Positions 17,817 to 18,573 of a DNA stretch of 64,000 bases are shown piece after piece. Each line of letters starts with the position of its first letter. Positions within the stretch are counted from its first letter, which is position 1. The stretch is taken from assembly GCF_002197845.1 (NCBI RefSeq), contig NZ_NIDE01000017.1, positions 248,001 through 312,000 on the forward strand, read 5' to 3'. Made by a program: the position numbers and the translations under genes. The notes below the pieces were generated by a model that saw only the letters and a program-made list of their open reading frames with translations, was not told the DNA's origin and made no database searches. This stretch comes from Fimbriiglobus ruber (GTDB lineage Bacteria; Planctomycetota; Planctomycetia; Gemmatales; Gemmataceae).

Positions 17817-18282
17817 GTTCTTCGTCCTCTCTGTCTGGTACCGGGGGAAATGGGAGCGCGGGCTCCGCGTTCCGGCCGGACACAATTTCGAGAGTCGGGG
17901 CTGAAGATCACGGTAGAGTTTACGCCAACATCAGGGCGGTCACAACCAAATGGCGGGCTCCGTATCCACCCGCCTGGGAGCCGGGTTTGACTCGGGCGGG
18001 CGAGACGTTTCCGCCTCCGCCTACCAGGCTCCCGGGCCGGATCGCGAGTGGAACGACTTCTCGAACCAGTGCGGGTAGAGGTTCGGCAAATGCCGAGACT
18101 CGGGGCTGATGAGACTGCCGGCCAGTTGTGGCGGAGTTGTATCGGGCGCGGGTCGTGCGGGCGGACGACTGGCAGTTTTGGGCCGAGAAAGTGACCGGAT
18201 GACCTGATCCATTTGCGTCGCAGCGATAGTATCATTGTAACGGATGTTTGGCCAGATCCAGAGTTTCTAAGGGGTACACGCG
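17817..18282. other. Gene-free stretch with a possible promoter
   Basis: I see no convincing gene in these 466 bases. Near the right end TTGCGT (18213-18218), 17 bases and TGTAAC (18236-18241) form a weak sigma-70-like promoter pointing at the small basic protein gene at 18283. Confidence 0.4.
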
Positions 18283-18387
18283 ATGGGCAAGGGTAACAAC
18301 TCTCAGGGCAAGGAAAAGAAGAAGCCGAAGAAGGACGCGAAAGCCGCCCCGGTCAAGACGCCGCCAGCGACGACGAAGAAGAAGTAA
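18283..18387 (+). CDS. Short lysine-rich protein, 34 aa
   Basis: ATG 18283 has AAGGGG upstream. The product begins MGKGNNSQGKEKKKPKK and ends TTKKK; over a third of residues are lysine. Very short proteins with a GNNSQ-then-lysine start are seen in many bacteria, from memory. It may bind nucleic acid. It ends eight bases before the tRNA-like gene, so the two could share a transcript. Confidence 0.55.
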   Translation: MGKGNNSQGKEKKKPKKDAKAAPVKTPPATTKKK

Positions 18388-18395
18388 GGGTCTCC

Positions 18396-18467
18396 GCAGG
18401 GGTGGAGTAGCAGACAACTCGTCGGGCTAATCCCCCGAAGCCGTGGGTGCGAATCCCACCCCCTGCG
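18396..18467 (+). tRNA. tRNA-like gene, diverged initiator type, anticodon AAT
   Basis: Every stem pairs perfectly: acceptor GCAGGGG/CCCCTGC, D GAGT/ACTC, anticodon TCGGG/CCCGA, T GTGGG/CCCAC. Most invariant positions are present (T8, A14, G15 with C48, G18, A21, T33, G53, T54, C56, A58, C61). Departures are A for G19, G for T55 and C at 37. The anticodon loop CTAATCC gives AAT. Three G-C pairs in the anticodon stem and A11:T24 are hallmarks of bacterial initiator tRNA, and TGGAG, CTCGTCGGGCT and CCCGAAG match initiator tRNA closely. The initiator C1/A72 mismatch is absent (G1-C72), and CCA is not encoded. It may be a special tRNA or a decayed copy. Confidence 0.7.
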
Positions 18468-18573
18468 CTCGGCACCTTACGGGCTACCACTTTAGAAGTG
18501 CGTACCGGCCGCCCGCCAACGCCATCTCCATCCAAGCGGATGGCGGCGCGGGAATCATGACCGTCATCGGTGC

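What the first reader, a model, noticed from the sequence alone, without database searches (positions are those of the whole stretch)
18396..18467. tRNA-like gene related to initiator tRNA with anticodon AAT
All four stems pair perfectly and most conserved tRNA positions are kept, so this is not random. It keeps the three G-C anticodon-stem pairs and A11:T24 of initiators but has G1-C72, A19, G55, C37 and anticodon AAT, which would read AUU. Perfect stems argue against simple decay. It could be a specialised tRNA (for example for AUU start codons or a non-ribosomal use) or a recently diverged copy.
Basis: partly seen in the sequence, partly recalled or inferred. Interest (0 to 1): 0.75.

Follow-up and report, generated by a model that had tools for sequence, protein, structure and literature searches.

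The report
Conserved initiator-derived tRNA with AAU anticodon
One family of planctomycete bacteria carries an extra transfer RNA that descends from the start-codon tRNA but has lost the marks of a methionine starter, keeps its shape and odd anticodon under selection, and often sits beside the gene for initiation factor IF-1, so it looks like a tRNA turned to another job.

Summary
In detail: 18396-18467 encodes a complete tRNA with anticodon AAU (Rfam tRNA 51.6 bits). It is not a lone decayed copy. Twenty-five copies above 67 bits occur in 19 of 95 Gemmataceae genomes; none were seen outside the family. All four stems are kept through compensatory changes, and the anticodon loop CUAAUCC is nearly invariant. 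Its nearest relative is the initiator tRNA (69-72% identity against 59% or less for others). It has lost initiator identity: anticodon CAU, the weak 1:72 pair (19 of 19 are G1-C72) and A37. Its discriminator varies between G and A, so charging by a strict synthetase is unlikely. Seventeen of 24 copies lie within 260 nt of infA (IF-1) or of a 31-35-residue basic ORF, which in this window ends 8 nt upstream. Seven copies have a -10 box exactly 12 nt upstream. infC starts at AUC with or without this tRNA, and no AUU start excess was seen. Best reading: an initiator-derived, probably uncharged tRNA acting on translation initiation; the mechanism is inferred only.

The parts
18396..18467 (+). tRNA gene, cloverleaf complete, anticodon AAU, no encoded CCA
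   Evidence: ARAGORN, Rfam 51.6 bits, 101.7 bits with family model R1, which was built with this sequence included
18429..18431 (+). anticodon AAU; 18427-18433 is the loop CUAAUCC with C37 and C38
   Evidence: A34, A35 and C37 in 24 of 25 copies, U33 and U36 in 25 of 25
18412..18413 (+). A18 G19 in the D loop
   Evidence: invariant in 25 of 25 copies; A18 goes with G55, G18 goes with U55
18448..18454 (+). T loop UGCGAAU with G55 in place of psi55 and C56 kept
   Evidence: G55, C56, G57, A58 invariant in 25 of 25
18283..18387 (+). small basic ORF MGKGNNSQGKEKKKPKKDAKAAPVKTPPATTKKK, stop 8 nt before the tRNA, probably co-transcribed
   Evidence: read; orthologues in 20 of 95 family genomes, next to this tRNA in several of them; no Pfam or NCBIfam match
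18227..18232 (+). candidate -10 box TAGTAT for a transcript of small ORF and tRNA (weak)
   Evidence: sequence only; the consensus scan found no full sigma-70 promoter here

Best explanation
A real, selected tRNA gene of a Gemmataceae-specific family descended from initiator tRNA. Shown: tRNA fold kept by compensation, initiator ancestry, loss of CAU and of a weak 1:72 pair, A18-G55 elbow, near-invariant CUAAUCC loop, linkage to infA and a small basic ORF. Inferred: it folds as an L, matures with an added CCA, and is not efficiently charged because the discriminator varies. With the initiator's anticodon-stem G-C pairs it would bind the 30S P site or another partner of initiator tRNA, and tune translation initiation as an initiator mimic rather than decode AUU.
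For: 25 copies in 19 of 95 family genomes, none elsewhere with the patterns used. Seven stem pairs changed on both sides, 99.1% of cells paired, 0 of 500 shuffles. Initiator is the nearest tRNA, 0.69-0.72 against 0.59 or less. A11-U24 and G30-C40, G31-C39 kept, with G29-C41 or A29-U41. G1-C72 in 19 of 19 parsed copies, while phage CAU relatives mostly have weak or mismatched 1:72. Discriminator G in 18 and A in 7, differing between copies of one genome. Located 5-9 nt behind infA in 7 copies, next to the small ORF in 9, and between infA and the small ORF in G077. -10-like box at exactly -12 in 7 copies, so transcription would start at tRNA base 1.
Against: No RNA, charging or binding data. The linkage to infA and the small ORF may reflect shared mobility or duplication, not shared function. 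The gene is patchy and decayed copies exist: L148 and L149 behind the small ORF, L234, and probably L074. One relative (G077) has a changed 6-nt anticodon loop. Most family genomes lack the gene, so it is not generally essential. P-site binding was not tested.
Confidence: 0.38

Rival explanations
1. A mobile, phage-derived tRNA gene that spreads and decays with little host function. Phages and prophages carry initiator-like tRNAs with the same elbow; the AAU branch is a chromosomal remnant that keeps its stems because it is young or often transmitted.
For: CAU initiator-like tRNAs with A18-G55 sit inside a prophage with capsid and cement genes in G061 and beside an integrase in G067; 113 IMG/VR contigs have the pattern. 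One AAU copy lies 83 nt from an integrase gene, one on an IMG/VR contig, one near phage-like genes in Zavarzinella. Multiple copies per genome and decayed copies.
Against: The anticodon loop is as conserved as the stems while other loop positions drift. Compensatory changes show selection for the RNA. Most copies sit beside infA or the small ORF rather than in phage regions. Outside the elbow and anticodon loop the AAU family is no closer to phage-type G55 tRNAs (mean 0.61) than to U55 initiators (mean 0.70).
Confidence: 0.22
2. A second initiator tRNA that starts translation at AUU (or, if A34 became inosine, also AUC and AUA), for example on infC, which has such a start.
For: Anticodon and initiator ancestry; proximity to infA; infC starts AUC in most genomes examined, AUU in G003 and probably in the second G000 copy.
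Against: infC starts at AUC also in relatives in which the tRNA was not found (G001, G002, G018). No SD-spaced ATT starts in the window and no clear excess near other copies. G1-C72 lacks the formylation determinant, and C37 is a pyrimidine where initiators and Ile tRNAs have A37 (established knowledge). The discriminator varies.
Confidence: 0.14
3. An aminoacyl donor for a non-ribosomal reaction, in the manner of the Staphylococcus tRNA-Gly used for cell-wall bridges, with its T arm changed so that EF-Tu lets it go.
For: Non-canonical T loop and an anticodon loop poor for decoding; dedicated non-proteinogenic tRNAs that escape EF-Tu are known (PMC9976931; PMC4810233).
Against: No transferase was seen next to it; the neighbours are infA and a lysine-rich peptide ORF. 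Variable discriminator. A18-G55 also occurs in phage tRNAs of many isotypes that are presumed to decode, so the elbow alone does not mark a non-ribosomal role.
Confidence: 0.1
4. A 3'-end processing or stabilising element for infA or small-ORF transcripts: RNase P and RNase Z cut at the tRNA and define the mRNA end.
For: 5-9 nt behind the stop codon in many loci; G19-C56, part of the elbow surface that RNase P recognises, is kept.
Against: Seven copies have their own -10-like box at -12 and need no upstream gene; the conserved anticodon loop is not needed for this.
Confidence: 0.08
5. An ordinary elongator tRNA-Ile reading AUU.
For: Anticodon AAU; ARAGORN label.
Against: The genome has tRNA-Ile(GAU). 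C37 cannot carry t6A, the discriminator is G here, the body is initiator-type, and most relatives lack the gene.
Confidence: 0.05

Closest known systems
Bacterial initiator tRNA (tRNA-fMet)
   Same: Nearest tRNA by sequence (69-72%); A11-U24; G-C pairs at 30-40 and 31-39; G-C or A-U at 29-41 (the host's own initiator has AGG/CCU).
   Different: Anticodon AAU instead of CAU, C37 and C38, G1-C72 instead of a weak or mismatched 1:72 pair, A18-G55 elbow, 4-nt instead of 5-nt variable loop, discriminator G or A.
Phage-borne initiator-like tRNA-Met(CAU) with A18-G55 elbow
   Same: Initiator-type body and the same elbow swap; found in Gemmataceae prophages too.
   Different: Keeps the CUCAUAA loop, usually a weak 1:72 pair, a 5-nt variable loop, mostly A73 and often an encoded CCA.
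Non-proteinogenic tRNA-Gly of Staphylococcus aureus
   Same: Specialised tRNA with T-arm changes thought to evade EF-Tu (PMC9976931).
   Different: Not glycine, no cell-wall ligase linked, initiator ancestry, charging unknown.
Bacterial tRNA-Ile (GAU or lysidine-CAU)
   Same: Anticodon ends in AU.
   Different: No A37, no fixed A73, different body; a normal tRNA-Ile(GAU) is present in the genome.

Membership tests
tRNA (canonical cloverleaf) | Four stems with standard lengths and conserved U8, A14, U33, C56, A58 | tested here: met
tRNA (canonical cloverleaf) | G18-psi55 elbow pair | tested here: not met
   A18 and G55 in 25 of 25
Initiator tRNA | Anticodon CAU | tested here: not met
   AAU; conserved in 24 of 25 copies
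Initiator tRNA | Mismatched or weak 1:72 pair for formylation | tested here: not met
   G1-C72 in 19 of 19 parsed AAU copies
Initiator tRNA | A11-U24 (purine 11, pyrimidine 24) | tested here: met
   (20 of 22 distinct rows A-U, one G-U, one unpaired)
Initiator tRNA | G-C pairs at 29-41, 30-40, 31-39 | tested here: met
   GGG/CCC in the window and in 19 of 22 distinct rows; A29-U41 in 3, which is also what the host initiator has
Initiator tRNA | Charged with Met, formylated, enters the P site | not testable with these tools
   needs biochemistry
tRNA-Ile | Anticodon NAU with A37 (t6A) and A73 | tested here: not met
   AAU but C37 and G73 in the window; discriminator varies in the family
Non-proteinogenic aminoacyl-donor tRNA | Charged but excluded from EF-Tu, with a linked or known transferase | not testable with these tools
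   no transferase recognised by eye next to the copies listed; charging cannot be tested
Pseudo-tRNA | Stem changes without compensation, no orthologues | tested here: not met
   truly decayed copies exist elsewhere

The most novel reading that the evidence does not exclude
Gemmataceae domesticated an initiator tRNA, stripped it of methionine and formylation identity, and use it as a trans-acting RNA that binds the initiation machinery (30S P site, IF2) or a toxin aimed at initiator tRNA, in concert with IF-1 and a lysine-rich micropeptide.
Probability: 0.3. Interest if true: 0.88.

Novelty: new variant of a known kind. Interest (0 to 1): 0.62.

Why it matters
A tRNA whose shape and anticodon loop are under selection but which lacks the marks for charging as a known isotype would be a rare case of a tRNA turned into a regulator. 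It occurs in genomes of named isolates (Limnoglobus roseus, Zavarzinella formosa), so it can be tested. The A18-G55 swap shows that the supposedly universal tRNA elbow pair has a natural alternative, frequent in phage tRNAs, which matters for tRNA gene finding, for psi55 modification and for how phage tRNAs may escape host enzymes.

Tried and rejected
DNA similarity in phages returned only ordinary U55 initiator-type tRNAs. Pattern hits L061, L064, L094 and L095 were rejected as chance matches: L061 and L064 give no tRNA in ARAGORN, and L094 and L095 were judged from their sequence, which lacks the arms. Other-anticodon search in viral contigs gave three hits and no relative with AAU. AUU start use was tested on infC and on SD-spaced ATT codons and not supported. 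Small ORF: no Pfam or NCBIfam family and no plasmid match. Papers on Gemmata tRNAs or phage initiator tRNAs with this elbow: none found in the held library, which does not prove that none exist. MFE folding does not return the cloverleaf as the minimum, as is common for tRNAs; the covariation evidence was used instead.

Full report
OBSERVATION. The only tRNA in the window is tRNA-Ile(AAT) at 18396-18468. Rfam scores 18396-18467 at 51.6 bits with no broken pair. Sequence: GCAGGGG TG GAGT AGCAGACA ACTC G TCGGG CTAATCC CCCGA AGCC GTGGG TGCGAAT CCCAC CCCCTGC G. G1-C72, A11-U24, GGG/CCC in the anticodon stem, C37, C38 and G55 are present. CCA is not encoded.

RELATIVES. The DNA search found close copies in other genera, all with anticodon AAT. 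A pattern from the anticodon arm to the T loop hit 20 of 95 family genomes (a few hits are chance or decayed). It hit nothing convincing in 392 genomes spread over the phylum. A degenerate exact pattern over the 84,980-species collection gave 16 loci, each the same locus as one already found in the family genomes, among them Limnoglobus roseus, Zavarzinella formosa and Gemmata sp. IIL30. A covariance model over the 95 genomes gave 25 copies above 67 bits in 19 genomes. Two further hits, 59 and 57 bits, are initiator-like CAU tRNAs.

SELECTION. On the 25-row alignment (22 distinct rows), 99.1% of cells pair, 7 pairs have changes on both sides, and no shuffle of 500 reached either value. Sliding the partner destroys the pairing (six-sequence version). 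The alignment was fitted to the model, which favours it somewhat, and shuffles do not correct for relatedness. Anticodon-loop columns are almost invariant (U33 and U36 25 of 25; A34, A35 and C37 24 of 25), while D-loop and T-loop linker positions drift. The discriminator is G in 18 and A in 7, and differs between copies in one genome. That argues against a synthetase that depends on base 73; this step is inference.

ANCESTRY. In a tree and by identity, the nearest tRNAs are initiators of the same family of bacteria (0.66-0.72), and all other tRNAs compared are at 0.59 or less. The host's own initiator has A29-U41, G30-C40, G31-C39. So the AAU family keeps initiator P-site marks but has lost CAU and the weak 1:72 pair.

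THE ELBOW. Position 18 is A and 55 is G in all 25 copies. A search for CAU initiator-like tRNAs with G55 found them in Gemmataceae: next to a capsid gene and a cement gene (L236, L241) and beside an integrase (L237). The matching pattern occurs in 113 viral contigs. The 80 fetched were selected for G55, not for A18, yet by inspection they have A18. Over 754 distinct tRNAs in fetched loci, U55 goes with GG in 568, and G55 goes with AG in 119; the few others are mostly parsing cases, such as AGTAGGA, which is also A18-G19. Among strictly parsed CAU and AAU tRNAs, 94 have A18/G55, 16 have G18/U55, and 3 are listed as G18/G55. So A18-G55 is a natural alternative to G18-psi55. Outside the elbow and anticodon loop, the AAU family is not closer to phage-type G55 tRNAs than to U55 initiators, so common descent with the phage type is open.

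NEIGHBOURS. In seven copies the tRNA starts 5-9 nt after a stop codon preceded by DLTKGRITFRIRG, the C terminus of IF-1 (IF-1 genes confirmed with PF01176 at those places). In seven copies, the window among them, it follows a 31-35-residue ORF M[GA]KGNN[SA]Q..EKKKPKK.. by 4-44 nt, and in two the ORF is downstream within 260 nt. In G077 the order is infA, tRNA-like gene, small ORF. In G066 a small ORF directly follows infA. By my count the ORF and the tRNA co-occur in about 17 genomes, against 2 with the tRNA alone and 4 with the ORF alone, without correction for relatedness. Two small ORFs are followed by decayed tRNA remnants. Seven copies have TAnnnT or a near match exactly 12 nt upstream (TAGACT twice, TACAAT, TAGAAT, TACACT, TAAGTC, TAAGAC, two of them read by eye), so transcription would begin at base 1; in the control for -10 likeness over all copies, 0 of 200 shuffles scored as high.

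FUNCTION. Decoding of AUU in elongation is unlikely: tRNA-Ile(GAU) is present, C37 cannot carry t6A, and most relatives lack the gene. Start at AUU is not supported: infC begins at AUC with AGGAG spacing in genomes with and without the tRNA, and SD-spaced ATT starts are absent in the window (a crude test on 64 kb). A role as aminoacyl donor is possible, but nothing links it to a ligase. Known precedent for specialised tRNAs escaping EF-Tu is the Staphylococcus tRNA-Gly (PMC9976931). Phage tRNAs are proposed to resist host anticodon nucleases such as VapC (PMC10264068), and enteric VapC cuts initiator tRNA (cited in PMC12482277). An initiator mimic as decoy for such a toxin is one form of the reading preferred here. 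The preferred reading, an uncharged initiator mimic acting on initiation, rests on ancestry, lost identity marks, retained P-site marks and the infA neighbourhood. Every functional step is inference.

VERDICT. Real and conserved gene family, unusual, not a pseudogene; function open.

Noticed in passing
L170:58-143 (- strand), own genome G000:C5:584738-584821: A leucine-type tRNA with long variable arm and anticodon UUA, which would read the stop codon UAA (ARAGORN tRNA-Stop, Rfam 58.3 bits).
   Followed up: partly
L156:83-155 and L156:2137-2211 (G000:C4 tRNA array of 20 genes): A compact array of 20 tRNA genes; two of them (Glu-UUC, Thr-CGU) also have the UGC T loop with A18-type D loops.
   Followed up: partly
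G000:C19:480692-480898 and G000:C1:458805-459011; G000:C13:38079-38270 and G000:C3:403850-404038: The genome has two infC-like and two infA-like genes; infC starts at AUC, the second infC probably at AUU.
   Followed up: partly
L244-L323 (viral contigs): Initiator-like tRNA-Met(CAU) genes with an A18-G55 elbow are common in phages; a UGC T loop also occurs in phage tRNAs for His, Thr, Ser, Leu, Cys, Tyr, Val and Ile.
   Followed up: partly
G113:C52, C549, C613: One genome carries four infA genes, three of them each followed by this tRNA.
   Followed up: no
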